Of a stretch of DNA of 64,000 bases, positions 1,855 to 9,070 are shown one piece after another. A model generated the notes under the pieces. It made no database searches and was not told the DNA's origin. It saw nothing but the letters and a program-made list of their open reading frames with translations. The stretch spans positions 2,232,001 through 2,296,000 of the forward strand of contig CP136945.1 of the NCBI GenBank assembly GCA_041530395.1, given 5' to 3'. Every line of letters begins with the position of its first letter. The stretch's first letter is position 1. A program made the translations under genes and the position numbers. Origin of the DNA: Thermosynechococcaceae cyanobacterium Okahandja. Lineage in GTDB: Bacteria; Cyanobacteriota; Cyanobacteriia; Thermosynechococcales; Thermosynechococcaceae.

Positions 1855-2778
1855 CTAATCGGTTTCGAGGCGATACCCTAATTCTGCCAAATGGGCGCGA
1901 TCCTGCCGCCAGCGGGGGCGCACTTTCACAAACAGTTCAAGGTAAAGCTGGCCGCCAAGGAGGGTTTCCATTTCTTGCCGTGCCGCTGTGCCGATTTGCT
2001 TGAGCAGGTGTCCTGCCTTGCCAATGAGAATGGCTTTCTGGCTGGGGCGCTCGACGTAAATGGCCGCATTCACGCGGGTCACTTTACCTTGGGGCTGCAC
2101 GTGTTCAATCGTCACCGCGACCGCATGGGGCACCTCTTCACGGGTGTGGTGCAAAATTTGCTCACGAATCAGTTCCGCCATAATGAACCGCTCCGGCTGA
2201 TCGGTGACCATGTCCGGTGGGTAGTAGTAGGGGCCAAGGGGCAACCTCTGGGCGATCGCCCCCTGTAATGGCTCCACCCCCTCCCCCGTTAGGGCAGAGC
2301 ACCCATAGGTGAGCCATGGGCCGAGGGTTTGATAGGCGTGCAGACGGGGTTGGCGATCGGCCTCGGCCACCTGATCCATTTTGTTCGCGGCCAGCAGCAC
2401 CGCGCGTTTCGTTGTTGTCAGCAGTTGAGCCACGTAGCGATCGCCCGTACCAGGGGGTGCCGTGCCATCCACCACAAACAAGATCACATCAACACGATTG
2501 AGCAAGCTTTTGGCATTGTGAACCAGCACCTCCCCCAGACGATGGTGTGGTTTATGGATGCCCGGAGTATCCACAAAAATAAACTGGGCGGTAGGGGTTG
2601 TGAGAATGCCCCGCAGTCGATTGCGGGTTGTTTGCGCAACCGGCGAAGTAATGGCCACCTTCTGTCCCAGCAAATGGTTAAATAGCGTGGACTTGCCGAC
2701 ATTGGGGCGGCCCACCAAGGCCACAAAACCCGAGCGAAACTGCGGCGGCGGCGTGGGAATGCTGGCAAGGGACTCCAC
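1855..2778 (-). CDS. era: GTPase Era
   Basis: Era is an essential GTPase that binds 16S rRNA during 30S assembly. The 307-residue protein shows G1 GRPNVGKS (23-30), the T of switch I, G3 DTPGIH, G4 NKMD, and a C-terminal KH domain containing [15 protein letters not shown] and the terminal [13 protein letters not shown] proline-rich N-terminal extension of about 15 residues precedes the G domain, so a slightly later start cannot be excluded. It lies between the exbD-like gene upstream (12 bases) and ureG downstream (2 bases), all on the minus strand. Confidence 0.97.
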
Positions 2779-2790
2779 AGCAGCCCACCC

Positions 2791-3288
2791 TTAGTTAGCC
2801 GTTGGTTCAGGGGATGGCGACTCAGCCTCTGGCAGGCTCGGTAGATTCTCGGTCGGGAGTGGATCACTGCCAAGCACCGGCTCCTCAACAGGCTGAGTAG
2901 CAAGGGCAACGCGGTTACCGCCCACCGAGCGCAGTAAATCCAGCACTTGGATGACCTCGTTGTAACTCACCACTTGCGAAGCGCGCAGGATCACCACCCC
3001 ATCAGGGTTGGTCTTCAGGTAGGTGCCCAACTGCTCAAATAGTTCAGTGCGGTTCACCGGATCCTTGTCCACGTACAGTTGCCCCGCCGGATCAATACTC
3101 ACCACCAGCATTTTCTGGGATTGGGCTTGACTGGTACTGGCTTGGGGCAAGTTCAGAGTAATGGCCTGCTGCCGCGTTAAACTCACCGCCGCCAAAATAA
3201 AAAAGGTCAGAATACAAAAGACCACATCAATGAGGGGCAACATTTCAATGCGGGCACCCTCAGTGTCACCGGGCACATGGATCTTCAC
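2791..3288 (-). CDS. ExbD/TolR-family biopolymer transport protein
   Basis: ExbD/TolR proteins form the inner-membrane, proton-motive-force-driven motor with ExbB/TolQ that energises outer-membrane processes. The 165-residue product has a short cytoplasmic N-terminus, the conserved [18 protein letters not shown] membrane segment with the functionally important Asp, then a periplasmic domain ([30 protein letters not shown]) and a Pro/Glu-rich tail. GTG start; a GAGGA ribosome site lies upstream at about 3296-3300. No exbB partner is adjacent. It heads a minus-strand run with era and ureG. Confidence 0.9.
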
Positions 3289-3359
3289 AAGCAGTCCTCA
3301 ACCACGCTGCTGTCCATGATAAATGCCGCAGCGAACAGAGTAGGATCAAAACGTTTCTG

Positions 3360-3974
3360 ATGTGTTGGCCTATGACCCCTACCGTGCCCCAGCCCGGACA
3401 ACTCATTGTCATTACCGGCCCTAGTGGTGTCGGTAAAGGGACGCTGCTGCGGCAACTGCGGCAACGCCACCCTGCTCTGGCCGTCTCAATTTCGGCCACA
3501 ACCCGCCCACCGCGACCCACAGAAACCCATGGCATTGATTATTACTTTGTCTCGGTGCCAGACTTTCAGGCCATGATTGAGGCGGGTGAACTGCTGGAAT
3601 GGGCAGAATTTGCCGGGCACTACTACGGCACGCCCCGGGAGCCACTGGTGCATCTCATTGAACAGGGCAAAACCGTGATTCTGGAAATTGAACTGCAAGG
3701 GGCACGCCAAGTGCGGCAATCCTATCCCCAAGCGCGTCACATTTTTATTTTGCCCCCCTCCCTTGCTGAACTGGAACGGCGGCTGCGCAGTCGTGGTCAA
3801 GATAGTGCAGCAGCGATCGCCCGGCGACTGGCGCAAGCGGAAACGGAAATTGCTGCCGCTCCCGAGTTTGATGTCCAAATTGTCAACGATGACCTTGAAA
3901 AAAGTTTAACCGCCCTTGAAACAGCAATCTTTAGCGCAACCTGCAAGCATCCTCCCCTTCAAATTTCTGATTGA
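3360..3974 (+). CDS. gmk: Guanylate kinase
   Basis: This enzyme phosphorylates GMP to GDP with ATP. The 204-residue protein has P-loop GPSGVGKG (20-27), the GMP-binding segment [22 protein letters not shown], the [13 protein letters not shown] region and [14 protein letters not shown], all diagnostic. The start is uncertain: ATG 3360 has no clear ribosome site and ATG 3372 ([10 protein letters not shown]) is an equally good alternative. Transcribed away from the exbD-like gene. The AT-rich restriction-modification island follows. Confidence 0.96.
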
Positions 3975-4053
3975 AGCGTGATGATGAATTGTGGCATTAA
4001 TGAACCAGCATGAGTCAGGTATGTTAAATTAGTGCAAGATGTATTCTGACATA

Positions 4054-4075
4054 ATTCTTTCATGATTCTTTCATG
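4054..4075 (+). repeat. Perfect 11-bp tandem repeat before the methyltransferase gene
   Basis: ATTCTTTCATG occurs twice without a gap (4054-4064 and 4065-4075), 26 bases before the TTG start of the methyltransferase. It sits in AT-rich DNA at the left edge of the island. It could be a protein-binding site controlling the restriction-modification genes or a trace of the insertion; the sequence does not decide. I see no controller-protein gene nearby. Confidence 0.6.
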
Positions 4076-4101
4076 ACTTTTAACGCATTGTAGAGGCCAC
4101 G

Positions 4102-5025
4102 TTGCTCACCAACACCAATAACTCGACAGAGTTAACTGCTTACCAAAATACAGTTCCTCACAGCCCGCACAAGATCGCGATCGCCCATACACGAACCTGC
4201 TCTTGCCCAGCAAATCATATTAACTGCCTCAGCGCCAAAGAATGGATTAAGTGCCAACTTGGGGTTTGGCAATTTTCCTATGAAGGCAGAGATATTCGTG
4301 ATAAGAATTTACATCCGGCAACATTTCCGATCGCCTTAGCCAAGCGAGTCATTAGCCTTTTTAGCCACGAGGGTGAGCTTGTGCTTGACCCTTTTGTCGG
4401 AAGTGGTACAACTCTTGTGGCGGCTCAGGATTTAAATCGCAATGCAGTTGGTTTTGATTTGAATGAAGCGTATATTCAACTATGCCATGAACGTTTGGCC
4501 GCAAATAATTTATTCAATAACGCTCAGCAGATAGTTGTTCAGGACGATGCCAGAAACATCCCTAATTATCTAGAGCCTGAAACAATAAGCTTGATTTGGA
4601 CATCTCCCCCTTACGCTAATTTGCTAAATCGTAAGCGAACAAACAAATCTAGAAGAAACCGTCGCAATGAGCAATTTGGCAAAGTTGAGCAGTACTCACA
4701 GGATGAACGGGACTTAGGCATAATGCCTATAGCAGAATACACCATAGCTATGGGTGATATTTTTTCAGCACTTTTGCCACTATTAAAGCCCAAAGCTCAT
4801 TGTGTGATTAATGTTCCTGATATGTGGTGGGAAGATCAACGGATTACCATTCATATCGCTCTTGTTGACGAACTCAGAAAACGGGGCTATGAGCTTAGAA
4901 ATATCATTATTTGGGATAGAACTAATATCGTTAATAAGGTGGGGATATTTGGTTGGCCTAGTAACTATATTACAATGGGGACAACCTTCGAGTATTTATT
5001 AGACTTCTGGAGACCACATCAGTGA
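4102..5025 (+). CDS. Type II DNA amino-methyltransferase (probably N4-cytosine)
   Basis: The 307-residue protein is an S-adenosylmethionine-dependent DNA methyltransferase acting on an exocyclic amino group. SAM-binding motif I DPFVGSGTTLVAA (about residues 94-106) comes before catalytic motif IV TSPPY (about residues 171-175). The TSPPY variant is typical of N4-cytosine enzymes. The order I then IV is permuted relative to the common beta class, and the protein ends with EYLLDFWRP, a segment that usually lies in the middle of beta-class enzymes. A Cys-rich stretch (CSCPANHINC) is near the N-terminus. TTG start with AGAGG at 4092-4096. The stop overlaps the start of the endonuclease gene (GTGA). 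Base composition is clearly more AT-rich than the neighbours, which suggests transfer. It should protect the host from the adjacent endonuclease. Confidence 0.9.
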   Translation: MLTNTNNSTELTAYQNTVPHSPHKIAIAHTRTCSCPANHINCLSAKEWIKCQLGVWQFSYEGRDIRDKNLHPATFPIALAKRVISLFSHEGELVLDPFVGSGTTLVAAQDLNRNAVGFDLNEAYIQLCHERLAANNLFNNAQQIVVQDDARNIPNYLEPETISLIWTSPPYANLLNRKRTNKSRRNRRNEQFGKVEQYSQDERDLGIMPIAEYTIAMGDIFSALLPLLKPKAHCVINVPDMWWEDQRITIHIALVDELRKRGYELRNIIIWDRTNIVNKVGIFGWPSNYITMGTTFEYLLDFWRPHQ

Positions 5026-5834
5026 AGCTTTTCACAAAGCCTGAGCTAATTGAGCGTATTCATGATGTGGCGGCTCAAGGATGGCATCGCAGCATTAAAA
5101 AAACAAGAACTAGTCGTAATGATGGTGCAGTGGGAAATACCCTAGAAATCTTGTTGGGACTTCAAGAAAATAATCTACCGATTCCAAATATGCAGGAGTG
5201 GGAACTCAAAGGTCAACGACTGCATACAAGTTCACTGACAATTCTCAAACATATCGAGCCTTCACCACGGGGTACAAAAATAGTCTCTAAAATTTTATTA
5301 CCCCTTTATGGATGGCAACATAAAGAAGCAGGCAGAAAATACCCAATCACAGAAAAAAGCTTTCGATCAACAACAACAGCAACAGAATATACCAATCGTG
5401 GTTTCCGTTTAATTCTAAATAGATCAAAAGGAAAGTTAGTTTTTGTTTTTGATCCATCTAAAGCTGATTGCTCAGATCCAGAAATTTGTGATTGGCTAAA
5501 GTCAGTAGAAACTAGAGTGGGTTTGCAAGGATTAAATCCCGAGCCATATTGGGGTTTAGATGATTTGAAATATGAAATAGGTTCTAAAATCAAAAATTCT
5601 TTTTATGTTATTGCTGATACTAAAGTTGAAAATGGACACGAGTTTTTCAAATATGTAAAGCTGCTCGTTTTATCTGGATTTTCCTTTGATGGTTTTTTGA
5701 ATCGTATTGAAGATGGTACAGTTCTTGTTGATTTTGATGCTCGCACCGGTCATAATCATGGCACTAAATTTAGAATTCGGCAAAACCAATGGTATAAACT
5801 CTATACTTCTGTTGAAGAAATTGACTTCAGTTAA
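5022..5834 (+). CDS. Type II restriction endonuclease, MvaI/BcnI family
   Basis: The 270-residue product matches the MvaI/BcnI family, monomeric enzymes that cut CC-W-GG or CC-S-GG sites one strand at a time. Supporting segments are GWHRSIKK (20-27), the DGAVGNTLEILLGLQENN region (34-51), the ELK of the ExK motif (Glu61, Lys63) within EWELKGQR, and a C-terminal TGHNHGTKFRI that resembles the His-containing catalytic tail of BcnI. The position five residues before Glu61, where I recall the family has a metal-binding Asp, is Asn56. GTG start overlapping the methyltransferase stop by 3 bases implies translational coupling. AT-rich like its partner. Target sequence cannot be read from the protein; a CCNGG-type site is an inference from the family. 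Confidence 0.86.
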   Translation: MKLFTKPELIERIHDVAAQGWHRSIKKTRTSRNDGAVGNTLEILLGLQENNLPIPNMQEWELKGQRLHTSSLTILKHIEPSPRGTKIVSKILLPLYGWQHKEAGRKYPITEKSFRSTTTATEYTNRGFRLILNRSKGKLVFVFDPSKADCSDPEICDWLKSVETRVGLQGLNPEPYWGLDDLKYEIGSKIKNSFYVIADTKVENGHEFFKYVKLLVLSGFSFDGFLNRIEDGTVLVDFDARTGHNHGTKFRIRQNQWYKLYTSVEEIDFS

Positions 5835-5840
5835 CCACAA

Positions 5841-7061
5841 ATGACACTTAAGGCAGCCATAGTCACGGCAGCTTACCTGCATCTCCCGTTTTGTCGGCGG
5901 CGCTGCTTCTACTGCGATTTTCCAATTACAGTAGTGGGGAATCAACCCTTAGCTTCGTCTTCGCCACTACTGCAGGACTACATTGATGCGCTTTGCTACG
6001 AAATTGAGCATACCCCCAGTGCTGGCAGCCCCTTAGAAACGATCTTTTTTGGCGGTGGCACACCCTCTTTAGTTCCCCCTCAGGAGATTGAGCGGCTGTT
6101 AAAGCTCTTGGATCGGCAGGTAGGCATTGCGGCCATGGCTGAAATTTCCATGGAAATGGATCCGGGAACGTTTGATCTGGCTCAGTTACGGGACTATCTG
6201 GAGGCGGGGATTAATCGGGTGAGTTTGGGGGTACAGGCTCTTGAAGATCGGCTGTTGCAGGTGTGTGGTCGCAGTCATCGGGTGGCTGATGTCTATGCTG
6301 CAGTGGAGGCTATCCATGGGGCGGGGGTAACCAACTGGAGTATGGATTTGATTTCGGGACTACCGGAGCAAACTCTAGATGAATGGCAGGCGTGCCTTGA
6401 GGGGGCGATCGCCCTAGCACCGAGTCATATTTCTATCTACGACTTAATTGTGGAGCCGCGGACGGTATTTAGTCGGCGCTACCAGCCAGAAGTCACGCCC
6501 TTACCTTCGCACGAGGAAGCGGCGGCAGCCTACCGCCTTGCCCATGACCTGTTGACGGCGGCGGGTTATGAGCACTACGAAATTTCCAACTACGCCCGAG
6601 CGGGGGCGGCCTGTCGTCACAATCAGGTCTATTGGCGGAATGAGCCGTACTACGGGTTTGGTATGGGGGCCACCAGTTATCTGAATCATCGCCGCCTCAG
6701 TCGGCCACGGACGCGCCGCGAGTATTACACTTGGGTGCAAACGCTGCCGGAAAGCTTAGCAAGCGTTCCCCCAGACCAGCCGTGGGATTACTGGCTAGAG
6801 ACACTGATGCTGGGCTTGCGCCTGAAGGAGGGGCTATGCCTCACCCGCTTAGGGCAAGAATTTCCCCCAGAGTGGGTGGCGGCACTGGTTAACGCGGCTC
6901 AGGACATAGATCTAGTTTATTTAGAGTGCCAAGGCGATCGCCTCCGCTTGCGACCGCCGGAAGGGTTTTTGATGGCCAACCGCGTGATTGTCTCGCTTTG
7001 GCAGGCCACGGAAAGATCGGTTATCCACCAACAGGGGACGCAACCACTGCCGATACACTAG
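5841..7061 (+). CDS. hemW: Radical SAM heme chaperone HemW (HemN-like)
   Basis: HemW is a HemN relative now known mainly as a heme chaperone rather than a coproporphyrinogen oxidase. The 406-residue protein has the radical SAM cluster motif CRRRCFYCDF (Cys18, Cys22, Cys25), the FFGGGTPSLVP glycine motif, EISMEMDPGTFD, NRVSLGVQALEDRLL and SMDLISGLPEQT, then the HemN C-terminal domain with YEISNYARAG and CRHNQVYWRNEPYYGFGMGA. HemN proper has an extra N-terminal Cys and trip-wire; this short form fits HemW. It begins 6 bases after the endonuclease stop, so it may now be read through from the island. Confidence 0.94.
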   Translation: MTLKAAIVTAAYLHLPFCRRRCFYCDFPITVVGNQPLASSSPLLQDYIDALCYEIEHTPSAGSPLETIFFGGGTPSLVPPQEIERLLKLLDRQVGIAAMAEISMEMDPGTFDLAQLRDYLEAGINRVSLGVQALEDRLLQVCGRSHRVADVYAAVEAIHGAGVTNWSMDLISGLPEQTLDEWQACLEGAIALAPSHISIYDLIVEPRTVFSRRYQPEVTPLPSHEEAAAAYRLAHDLLTAAGYEHYEISNYARAGAACRHNQVYWRNEPYYGFGMGATSYLNHRRLSRPRTRREYYTWVQTLPESLASVPPDQPWDYWLETLMLGLRLKEGLCLTRLGQEFPPEWVAALVNAAQDIDLVYLECQGDRLRLRPPEGFLMANRVIVSLWQATERSVIHQQGTQPLPIH

Positions 7062-7129
7062 ATCAAGAAGATGGCACTGCTATTAGGTGCTTGTGTCTAG
7101 TGATTCAGTAACGCTCACGGGAACCGATC

Positions 7130-9070
7130 ATGCTGGAACAGGGAACCATTTCGATTCATACTGAGAATATTTTTCCGATTATTAAAAAATGGCTCTACTC
7201 CGATCATGAAATTTTCCTACGGGAGCTTGTCTCTAATGCGGTGGATGCCATTCAAAAATTACGGCTGATTGCGCGCTCTGGCGACTACAGTGGCGATGTG
7301 GATCACCCTGAAATCACCATTACCCTCGATAAAGAGAACAAAACCCTAGCGATCGCCGATACAGGTCTGGGCATGACTGCCGAGGAGGTGAAAAAGTATA
7401 TTACCCAAGTGGCCTTTTCCAGCGCTGAAGAGTTTGTCCAAAAGTACAAAGCAGAGGGCGATCAACAAATTATTGGTCACTTTGGCTTAGGGTTTTACTC
7501 CGCCTTCATGGTGGCCAGCCGGGTAGAAATTGATACCCTCTCCTACCGCGAGGGAGCCACCCCCGTTCACTGGACCTGTGATGGCTCGACGGAGTTTACC
7601 CTCGAAGATGGTCAGCGTACCCAGGTGGGGACGACCGTCACCCTGACGTTGCAAGAGGAAGAACTCGGTTACCTAGAACCGGCGCGCATTCGCGAACTCG
7701 TGCGCAAATACTGCGACTTTTTGCCCGTTCCCATTAAACTCGATGGCGAGCAAATTAATAAGCAAATTGCGCCGTGGAAGAGTTCCCCCAACAGCCTCAG
7801 TAAAGAGGATTACCTCGAGTTTTATCGCTACCTCTATCCCTTTCAAGAGGATCCATTGCTGTGGGTACACTTGAATACCGACTATCCCTTTGTGGTCAAC
7901 GGTATTCTTTACTTTCCGAAGCTGCGCCCCGATATTGATGTTACCAAAGGGCAAATCAAACTCTTTTGCAACCAAGTCTTCGTTAGCGATAACTGCGAGG
8001 AAATCATTCCTCGCTTTTTGCTCCCCTTACGGGGCGTGATTGACAGTACCGATATTCCCCTCAATGTCTCCCGCAGCTTTTTGCAAAACGATCGCACCGT
8101 GCGCAAAATCGCCGACTACATTGCCAAAAAGGTGGGCGATCGCCTCAAAGAACTCTACCGCGAAGACCCCACCACCTACGTGCGCTCATGGCAAGACCTC
8201 GGCACGTTTGTCAAATTTGGCTCCCTCAACGATGAGAAGTTCAAAAAACAGGTCGAGGATATTCTGATCTATCGCACAACTGCCACGCTCACCACCTCCG
8301 ATAGTGACGATGCTTGGGCCACCCAAGGGGGCATCACCGTAGATGGTCAAGCCTACACGACCCTTAAGGAGTACCTCGAGCGGAACAAGGAGCGCCACGC
8401 CAATCGCGTCTATTACTGCACCGATGAGGTGAACCAAGCCACCTACGTCCAGCTTCTGAAGGGGCAGGGTATTGAAGTGCTGTTTATGGACAGCTTTATT
8501 GACACTCACTTTGTGCCGTGGCTAGAGCACACCTACAGTGAGCTTAAATTCCTGCGGGTCGATGCCGAACTAGACGACATCCTCATCGACAAAGATAAAA
8601 GTAGTGAAATCATTGATCCGGGCACCAATAAAACCCGCAGCGAACAAATTAAAGCCCTCTTTGAGGCGGTACTCAAAAAACCCAAGCTCACCATCCGCAC
8701 AGAAGCGCTGAAATCCGGCACCCATGGGGAGGCACCCCCGGCAATGATCCTGTTGCCCGAAACCAGTCGGCGGATGCAGGAAATGATGGCAATGATGCAG
8801 CAGCAACTTCAGCCCCAACTACCGGAGGAGCACACCCTTGTGGTCAATACCAGTCACCCCCTGATCCAAAATCTGCTGAACTTAAGTCAGGGCACCATCA
8901 TCCAAACCAGCGGCCAGTCAGACACGGCCACCTTGGTGGAGAAACTGTGCCACTACGTTTATGACTTAGCATTAATGTCCCAGCGGGGCTTTGATGCCAA
9001 TGGTATGCAGCAGTTTAGTGAACGTGCCAGTCAGGTGCTCACCCAGTTGACCACAATGGCGATTCGTTAG
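7130..9070 (+). CDS. htpG: Chaperone HtpG (bacterial Hsp90)
   Basis: This is an ATP-dependent dimeric chaperone; in cyanobacteria HtpG is important for heat tolerance and interacts with tetrapyrrole enzymes and phycobilisome linkers (family knowledge). The 646-residue protein has the GHKL ATPase signature: RELVSNAVDAIQKLR near the N-terminus, DTGLGMT, and IIGHFGLGFYSAFMVA. Middle-domain segments GVIDSTDIPLNVSRSFLQND follow and the C-terminal dimerisation domain is complete. Length is normal. ATG start; 68 bases separate it from hemW. Confidence 0.98.
   Translation: MLEQGTISIHTENIFPIIKKWLYSDHEIFLRELVSNAVDAIQKLRLIARSGDYSGDVDHPEITITLDKENKTLAIADTGLGMTAEEVKKYITQVAFSSAEEFVQKYKAEGDQQIIGHFGLGFYSAFMVASRVEIDTLSYREGATPVHWTCDGSTEFTLEDGQRTQVGTTVTLTLQEEELGYLEPARIRELVRKYCDFLPVPIKLDGEQINKQIAPWKSSPNSLSKEDYLEFYRYLYPFQEDPLLWVHLNTDYPFVVNGILYFPKLRPDIDVTKGQIKLFCNQVFVSDNCEEIIPRFLLPLRGVIDSTDIPLNVSRSFLQNDRTVRKIADYIAKKVGDRLKELYREDPTTYVRSWQDLGTFVKFGSLNDEKFKKQVEDILIYRTTATLTTSDSDDAWATQGGITVDGQAYTTLKEYLERNKERHANRVYYCTDEVNQATYVQLLKGQGIEVLFMDSFIDTHFVPWLEHTYSELKFLRVDAELDDILIDKDKSSEIIDPGTNKTRSEQIKALFEAVLKKPKLTIRTEALKSGTHGEAPPAMILLPETSRRMQEMMAMMQQQLQPQLPEEHTLVVNTSHPLIQNLLNLSQGTIIQTSGQSDTATLVEKLCHYVYDLALMSQRGFDANGMQQFSERASQVLTQLTTMAIR

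What the first reader, a model, noticed from the sequence alone, without database searches (positions are those of the whole stretch)
4102..5834. Horizontally acquired BcnI/MvaI-type restriction-modification island between gmk and hemW
Two overlapping genes (GTGA) encode an amino-methyltransferase and a monomeric nicking-type endonuclease family member. By eye the DNA is much more AT-rich than the flanks and holds only one HIP1 site, near its left end, while the neighbours are rich in them. hemW now starts 6 bases after the endonuclease, so the insertion probably replaced its promoter.
Basis: partly seen in the sequence, partly recalled or inferred. Interest (0 to 1): 0.62.

Follow-up and report, generated by a model that had tools for sequence, protein, structure and literature searches.

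The report
Type II restriction-modification gene pair
A hot-spring cyanobacterium carries a two-gene DNA-cutting defence system (a protective DNA methylase plus a matching DNA-cutting enzyme) that its lineage took from a distant bacterium long ago, and the missing words in the host genome suggest that the system cuts at GRCGYC rather than at the CCNGG sites known for this enzyme family.

Summary
Window 4102-5834 holds two genes overlapping by GTGA: an amino-methyltransferase (TSPPY, motif order X-I-IV) and a restriction endonuclease of the MvaI/BcnI family (Pfam PF15515, E=3e-57; the predicted fold matches only MvaI and BcnI in the PDB). GC is 0.394 against 0.552±0.034 in the host. HIP1 scarcity (1 seen, 2.0-2.4 expected) is not significant.

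The interpretation needs correction. Only two of 11 genus genomes have the pair: this one and T. lividus PCC 6715. In both it lies beside hemW, and their copies are sisters nested among Nitrospirota, Chloroflexota and Bdellovibrionota homologues. The transfer is therefore old and cross-phylum. In the ten relatives gmk is followed by livF, so this is not a gmk-hemW insertion; a rearrangement brought gmk here.

CCNGG is not supported as target. The site most specifically depleted in the two carriers is GRCGYC (O/E 0.14 and 0.36; 0.72-0.78 in four relatives without the pair), ranked first of 400 palindromes. It is assigned to this system by exclusion, as probable N4-methylcytosine. The nearest outside carriers show no obvious GGCGCC depletion.

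In most homologues the endonuclease's catalytic Asp is Asn, with an acid three residues on. It is an ordinary kind of system with an interesting predicted specificity and active site.

The parts
4102..5025 (+). DNA (cytosine-N4, predicted) methyltransferase, 307 aa, TTG start, motif order X-I-IV
   Evidence: PF01555 in two pieces 2.1e-30; PADLOC PDLC03363 type II MTase 9e-138; AF2 model pTM 0.78, nearest folds have the unpermuted X-I-IV order
4312..4329 (+). motif X region HPATFP
   Evidence: H71 P72 A73 T74 P76 invariant in 36 homologues
4387..4407 (+). motif I DPFVGSG (AdoMet binding)
   Evidence: nearly all residues invariant in 36 homologues
4600..4614 (+). motif IV TSPPY (catalytic, SPPY type)
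   Evidence: T167-Y171 invariant in 36 homologues
5022..5834 (+). MvaI/BcnI-family restriction endonuclease, 270 aa, GTG start overlapping the MTase stop (GTGA)
   Evidence: PF15515 3.4e-57; profile hits to R.MvaI 2e-29 and R.BcnI 2e-18; model pLDDT 89 matches 2oaa/2odi, TM 0.76-0.77 by target length
5187..5210 (+). active-site stretch N56-M-Q-E59-W-E61-L-K63 (BcnI D55-x4-E60-x-K62)
   Evidence: E61 and K63 invariant; N56 in 83 of 91 homologues, 80 of those 83 with E or D at 59
4078..5846 (+). whole block homologous (80% DNA identity) to T. lividus PCC 6715 (G003); homology stops just outside the two genes
   Evidence: blastn and junction alignments
3360..3974 (+). gmk, left neighbour by rearrangement; last about 12 codons (from about 3936) differ from all relatives
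   Evidence: relatives' gmk aligns only to residue 192-193 and is followed by livF on the other strand
5841..7061 (+). hemW, start shifted 6 codons upstream; the ancestral ATG is ATA at 5859-5861
   Evidence: junction alignment with G003 and other relatives
4177..4184 (.). the only HIP1 site inside; absent from the G003 copy

Best explanation
This is a complete type II restriction-modification system. The methyltransferase adds a methyl group to the amino nitrogen of a cytosine (m4C) in the host's own target sites. The endonuclease, a MutH/MvaI/BcnI-like PD-(D/E)XK nuclease, cuts the same site when unmethylated, so it attacks incoming phage or plasmid DNA. The ancestor of this strain and T. 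lividus PCC 6715 acquired it from a non-cyanobacterial donor and kept it beside hemW. The most likely target is GRCGYC. Shown: family and fold of both proteins, intact frames, catalytic motifs, phylogeny, gene context, and GRCGYC depletion in exactly the two carriers. Inferred: enzymatic activity, m4C as the modification, and the link between this system and GRCGYC (by exclusion of the other cytosine methyltransferases found).
For: R-M identity. Origin: REase and MTase trees put this strain and G003 together (support 100/97 and 100/99) within a Nitrospirota J017 / Pseudobdellovibrionaceae / Anaerolinea group; the family is found in 3 of 386 sampled cyanobacterial genomes but at 474 places in genome contigs. 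Target: GRCGYC is first of 400 degenerate palindromes for depletion in the carriers (z -12.9; O/E 0.14 and 0.36 against 0.72-0.78). All member words are depleted in this genome (GGCGCC 0.13, GACGCC 0.15, GACGTC 0.13), while one-base neighbours such as AACGCC, GTCGCC and AGCGCC are near 1. Whole-genome counts of GACGCC on both strands: 190 and 322 against 818-1017 in nine relatives; GGCGCC: 212 and 290 against 593-827. GGCGCC has no A, so the methylase must act on C. Whole-genome searches of the two carriers and four relatives for PF00145 and PF01555 found no other cytosine-type methylase limited to the two carriers, and no HindVP/BsaHI-type endonuclease in the genus. Method check: CCWGG avoidance (0.11-0.22) follows presence of the EcoRII/Dcm-like m5C methylase and is weak (0.66) in the one genome without it. 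Homologous systems with the beta-type methylase also sit in DNA poor in GRCGYC (O/E 0.49, first of 288 by z).
Against: The two carriers are sisters, so within the genus the correlation is one evolutionary contrast. The nearest outside carriers show no obvious GGCGCC depletion (J017: 1222 against 1006 control; Anaerolinea MAG: 1675 against 1263), and pooled loci with the permuted methylase show only mild GRCGYC depletion (O/E 0.82). Those are MAGs, possibly with recent copies, but they weaken the assignment. GCCGGC and CGGCCG are also lower in the two carriers. The pooled loci had no matched control without the system. The HindVP search also found nothing in the 14 control genomes, so its negative is weak. 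No activity or methylome data exist here.
Confidence: 0.6

Rival explanations
1. The same R-M system, but with a CC(N)GG-type target as in BcnI (CCSGG) or MvaI (CCWGG).
For: Closest characterised relatives by sequence and fold are BcnI and MvaI. The histidine aligned with BcnI H77 is conserved. CCWGG is strongly avoided in both carriers.
Against: CCSGG is not depleted (0.89 and 0.93 against 0.81-0.89 in non-carriers). CCWGG is avoided equally in non-carriers and follows the EcoRII/Dcm-like methylase. Identity to BcnI/MvaI is low (20-24% in the structural alignments), and this family has K where BcnI has H219.
Confidence: 0.12
2. A functional R-M system with another target (for example GCCGGC or CGGCCG, the next most carrier-specific depleted palindromes, or a site that is not avoided); GRCGYC depletion is a relic of a different, lost system.
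For: GCCGGC (0.38/0.51 against 0.84-1.03) and CGGCCG (0.19/0.23 against 0.45-0.79) are also depleted in the carriers. The nearest homologues' hosts do not obviously avoid GGCGCC. R-M systems come and go: G003 holds a decayed Eco47II-type system beside this one.
Against: It needs an unseen GRCGYC system present long enough to shape both genomes and then lost from both. The GRCGYC signal is about twice as strong by z, and the beta-type carriers show GRCGYC depletion independently.
Confidence: 0.22
3. The endonuclease is dead or nick-only because the family's catalytic Asp is Asn (N56), leaving essentially a methylation system.
For: N56 replaces the aspartate aligned with BcnI D55.
Against: N56 is conserved in 83 of 91 homologues over many phyla, with E or D at position 59 in 80 of those 83 and invariant E61-x-K63. 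Both frames are intact in both carriers after long divergence. BcnI also has an acid at the aligned position 58. The genomes show avoidance, which points to cutting.
Confidence: 0.08

Closest known systems
BcnI (CC^SGG) and MvaI (CC^WGG) restriction endonucleases, PDB 2odh/2odi and 2oa9/2oaa
   Same: Same Pfam family PF15515, same predicted fold over the whole chain, E-x-K motif, H77 equivalent; paired with amino-methyltransferases
   Different: Only 20-24% identical in structure alignments; first catalytic Asp is Asn with an acid 3 residues later; Lys where BcnI has H219; CCSGG/CCWGG not avoided by carriers beyond non-carriers; GRCGYC is
BsaHI / HgiDI / AcyI-type R-M systems (GRCGYC)
   Same: Predicted target GRCGYC, a target reported for several cyanobacterial R-M systems (PMC4390886)
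   Different: BsaHI has an m5C methylase and its own endonuclease family (PMC2413257); neither an extra m5C MTase nor a HindVP-family REase was found in the two carriers
PADLOC type II families PDLC03363 (MTase) and PDLC03524 (REase)
   Same: Best full-length matches (9e-138 and 2.3e-68)
   Different: No recognition site is given by the models
Homologous pairs with a beta-type (IV..X-I) methylase, e.g. cyanobacterial genome G284 (L070) and many Bacteroidota
   Same: Same endonuclease subfamily, 50-58% identical, same N-x-x-E-x-E-x-K site
   Different: The methylase has the beta motif order; in Omnitrophota and two viral contigs both methylases flank the endonuclease

Membership tests
MvaI/BcnI restriction endonuclease family (PF15515) | Sequence match above the curated cut-off over the whole domain | tested here: met
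   194.5 bits against cut-off 25, residues 10-261; R.MvaI and R.BcnI are the only PDB sequence hits
MvaI/BcnI restriction endonuclease family (PF15515) | MvaI/BcnI fold | tested here: met
   AF2 model pLDDT 89; only MvaI and BcnI below E 0.001, TM 0.77 and 0.76 by target length
MvaI/BcnI restriction endonuclease family (PF15515) | Catalytic D-x4-E-x-K | tested here: inconclusive
   E-x-K invariant; D replaced by N in this subfamily, with E/D three residues on; function of the replacement not testable here
MvaI/BcnI restriction endonuclease family (PF15515) | Monomer cutting one strand at a time | not testable with these tools
   biochemical property, known for BcnI and MvaI (PMC4081073)
BcnI/MvaI-type specificity CCNGG | Target CCSGG or CCWGG | tested here: not met
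   indirect test: no carrier-specific avoidance of CCSGG or CCWGG
Type II R-M system | Adjacent intact REase and cognate MTase genes | tested here: met
   GTGA overlap, intact frames here and in G003; pair conserved in dozens of genomes
DNA amino-methyltransferase, cytosine-N4 type | Motifs I (FxGxG) and IV (S/TPPY) | tested here: met
   DPFVGSG and TSPPY, invariant in 36 homologues; order X-I-IV
DNA amino-methyltransferase, cytosine-N4 type | m4C product | not testable with these tools
   needs a methylome
BsaHI/HgiDI (GRCGYC) R-M family | m5C methylase and HindVP/BsaHI-type REase | tested here: not met
   this pair is an amino-MTase plus an MvaI/BcnI REase; no extra m5C MTase and no PF09519 in the carriers

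The most novel reading that the evidence does not exclude
A widespread R-M lineage in which an MvaI/BcnI-fold endonuclease with a relocated catalytic acid (N-x-x-E-x-E-x-K instead of D-x4-E-x-K) recognises GRCGYC, a neoschizomer candidate of BsaHI/AcyI protected by m4C instead of m5C. Its methylase has been swapped repeatedly between a permuted and a beta-type enzyme of the same specificity.
Probability: 0.45. Interest if true: 0.5.

Novelty: new member of a known kind. Interest (0 to 1): 0.36.

Why it matters
If the prediction holds, it assigns a target to a large uncharacterised R-M subfamily (474 loci found, many in uncultured phyla), supplies a thermophile-derived enzyme with a useful degenerate six-base site, and tells those who transform thermophilic cyanobacteria which sites to protect. 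It would also show that the MvaI/BcnI fold can read a site other than CCNGG, and that a PD-(D/E)XK enzyme can work with its first Asp moved by three residues.

Tried and rejected
CCSGG, CCWGG and CCGG as targets: no carrier-specific avoidance. HIP1 scarcity as evidence of foreignness: not significant. Insertion between ancestral neighbours gmk and hemW: rejected, since gmk is followed by livF in all relatives. Recent acquisition: rejected from third-position identity and the shared hemW linkage. The decayed R-M beside hemW in G003 as the cause of GRCGYC depletion: it is Eco47II-type (PF09553; by my own knowledge Eco47II reads GGNCC), not GRCGYC. The m5C methylase conserved across most of the genus as the cause: EcoRII/Dcm-like with a conserved recognition region, also present in non-carriers without GRCGYC avoidance. 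Promoter and terminator scan 3900-5900: not above shuffles. Rfam 2500-8000: nothing. The MvaI and BcnI structure papers were not held.

Full report
What is there. The window is part of a 2,817,282-bp single-contig genome (G000), at 2,232,001-2,296,000. Two ORFs overlap by GTGA at 4102-5025 and 5022-5834. The first is an amino-methyltransferase (PF01555, 2.1e-30; PADLOC PDLC03363, 9e-138) and the second an MvaI/BcnI-family endonuclease (PF15515, 3.4e-57; PDLC03524, 2.3e-68). A family profile finds only R.MvaI (2e-29) and R.BcnI (2e-18) in the PDB. The predicted endonuclease structure (pLDDT 89) matches only MvaI and BcnI convincingly (TM 0.77 and 0.76 by target length, next hit E 0.04).

The methyltransferase has its AdoMet motif (DPFVGSG) before the catalytic motif (TSPPY), the reverse of the usual beta-class order. 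Its AF2 model (pTM 0.78, mean pLDDT 73) matches methyltransferases with the unpermuted X-I-IV order. TSPPY points to an exocyclic-amine methylase, most likely m4C (established motif knowledge; not tested here).

Composition. GC of the island is 0.394; none of 2134 equal-size host windows is as low (mean 0.552, sd 0.034). The copy in G003 is also AT-rich (0.43 and 0.37).

History. G003 has the exact length (2,659,739 bp) given for Synechococcus (Thermosynechococcus) lividus PCC 6715 in PMC9403480. Of 11 genus genomes only G000 and G003 have the endonuclease, and only they have this methylase. In both, the pair lies next upstream of hemW. DNA homology between them covers just the pair, window 4078-5846. 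In the endonuclease and methylase trees the two are sisters (100/97 and 100/99), nested with a Nitrospirota MAG, a Pseudobdellovibrionaceae MAG and an Anaerolinea MAG. Third-codon-position identities are 0.60 and 0.65 for the R-M genes and 0.52 and 0.62 for hemW and htpG. So the pair was gained once, from outside cyanobacteria, before the two lineages split.

The gmk neighbour. In the ten relatives gmk is followed by livF on the opposite strand, and hemW is elsewhere with varied upstream neighbours (livF read from the translated flank). In G000 the last dozen or so codons of gmk are new. A rearrangement in this lineage therefore joined era-exbD-gmk to R-M-hemW-htpG. In G003 the left neighbour is a ThiS/MoaD-like gene. 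On the right, hemW in G000 uses an ATG six codons upstream of the ancestral start, which is now ATA, 6 bp after the endonuclease stop. Expression of hemW may now depend on the R-M transcript (inference).

Family. A contig scan found 474 places encoding relatives; the best 80 were read. The endonuclease pairs with either the permuted methylase or a beta-type one. In Omnitrophota and two viral contigs both are present. The tree needs at least three changes of partner on supported branches, which suggests that the two methylases protect the same site (inference).

Active site. BcnI has PD and E-x-K only four residues apart (PMC4081073), matching D55-x4-E60-x-K62 in the alignment. Here D55 is N56. 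Of 91 homologues 83 have N, and 80 of those 83 have E or D at position 59; E61 and K63 are invariant. In some homologues that keep D, position 59 is G, I or V. This looks like migration of the catalytic acid, but BcnI itself has both acids, so it remains a hypothesis.

Target. I compared word counts in 400 kb each of G000, G003 and four relatives lacking the pair, using maximal-order Markov expectations. GRCGYC ranked first of 400 degenerate palindromes for carrier-specific depletion: 52/377 = 0.14 and 119/331 = 0.36, against 0.72-0.78. All member words are depleted in G000, while one-base neighbours are not. Whole-genome counts across all 11 genomes separate the two carriers cleanly. CCSGG and CCWGG are not carrier-specific. 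As a method check, CCWGG avoidance follows an EcoRII/Dcm-like m5C methylase that one genome lacks.

Assignment to this system is by exclusion. GGCGCC contains no A, so a cytosine methylase is needed, and PF00145 and PF01555 searches found no other cytosine-type methylase restricted to the two carriers. No HindVP/BsaHI-type endonuclease was found, though that search had no positive control. Independent support: 41 loci with the beta-type methylase, from varied phyla, are depleted in GRCGYC (O/E 0.49, bootstrap 0.35-0.60, first of 288 by z). Against: loci with the permuted methylase show only 0.82, and two close outside carriers show no obvious GGCGCC depletion. I put GRCGYC at about 0.6.

Literature. 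GRCGYC is a target reported for several cyanobacterial R-M systems (PMC4390886) and is methylated as m5C on the central cytosine by BsaHI-type enzymes (PMC2413257). In the ten papers found for GRCGYC I saw no m4C or MvaI/BcnI-type GRCGYC system; three of the ten were opened. REBASE could not be consulted.

Verdict. The history is corrected and a specific, cheaply testable target prediction replaces CCNGG.

Noticed in passing
L035:4129-5231 (T. lividus PCC 6715, between the endonuclease gene and hemW): A second, decayed R-M system: the N-terminal part of an Eco47II-type endonuclease (PF09553, 3.7e-39), a MerR-like HTH piece and the C-terminal end of an m5C methylase with stops, convergent to the MvaI/BcnI pair.
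   Followed up: partly
G003:C1:1970242-1970819 (L054/L055): gmk of PCC 6715 is split between two frames with an in-frame TGA; gmk is normally essential, so this may be a sequencing error or a frameshift.
   Followed up: no
L094, L101, L157, L158: Three-gene form: permuted methylase, endonuclease and beta-type methylase together (Omnitrophota and two IMG/VR contigs).
   Followed up: partly
genus-wide, G004 as exception: CCWGG is avoided (O/E 0.11-0.22) in the five sampled genomes with an EcoRII/Dcm-like m5C methylase and much less (0.66) in G004, which has no PF00145 methylase; GGNCC and GRGCYC behave alike.
   Followed up: partly
upstream of hemW in the genus (L033-L042): hemW-htpG is stable but the gene upstream of hemW differs between lineages, so this looks like a rearrangement hot spot.
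   Followed up: partly
L115:4001-4801 and L120:2264-3043: Endonuclease genes with an internal stop codon in two MAGs; the methylase beside the gene is intact in L115.
   Followed up: no
G000 and G003 genomes: GCCGGC, CGGCCG and (mainly G000) GCATGC are also less common than in relatives; cause unknown.
   Followed up: no
G000:C1:139370-141223 and G003:C1:1109443-1110225: Type III-like Mod proteins that are 90% identical over one stretch and 55% over another, as expected for target-domain exchange.
   Followed up: no
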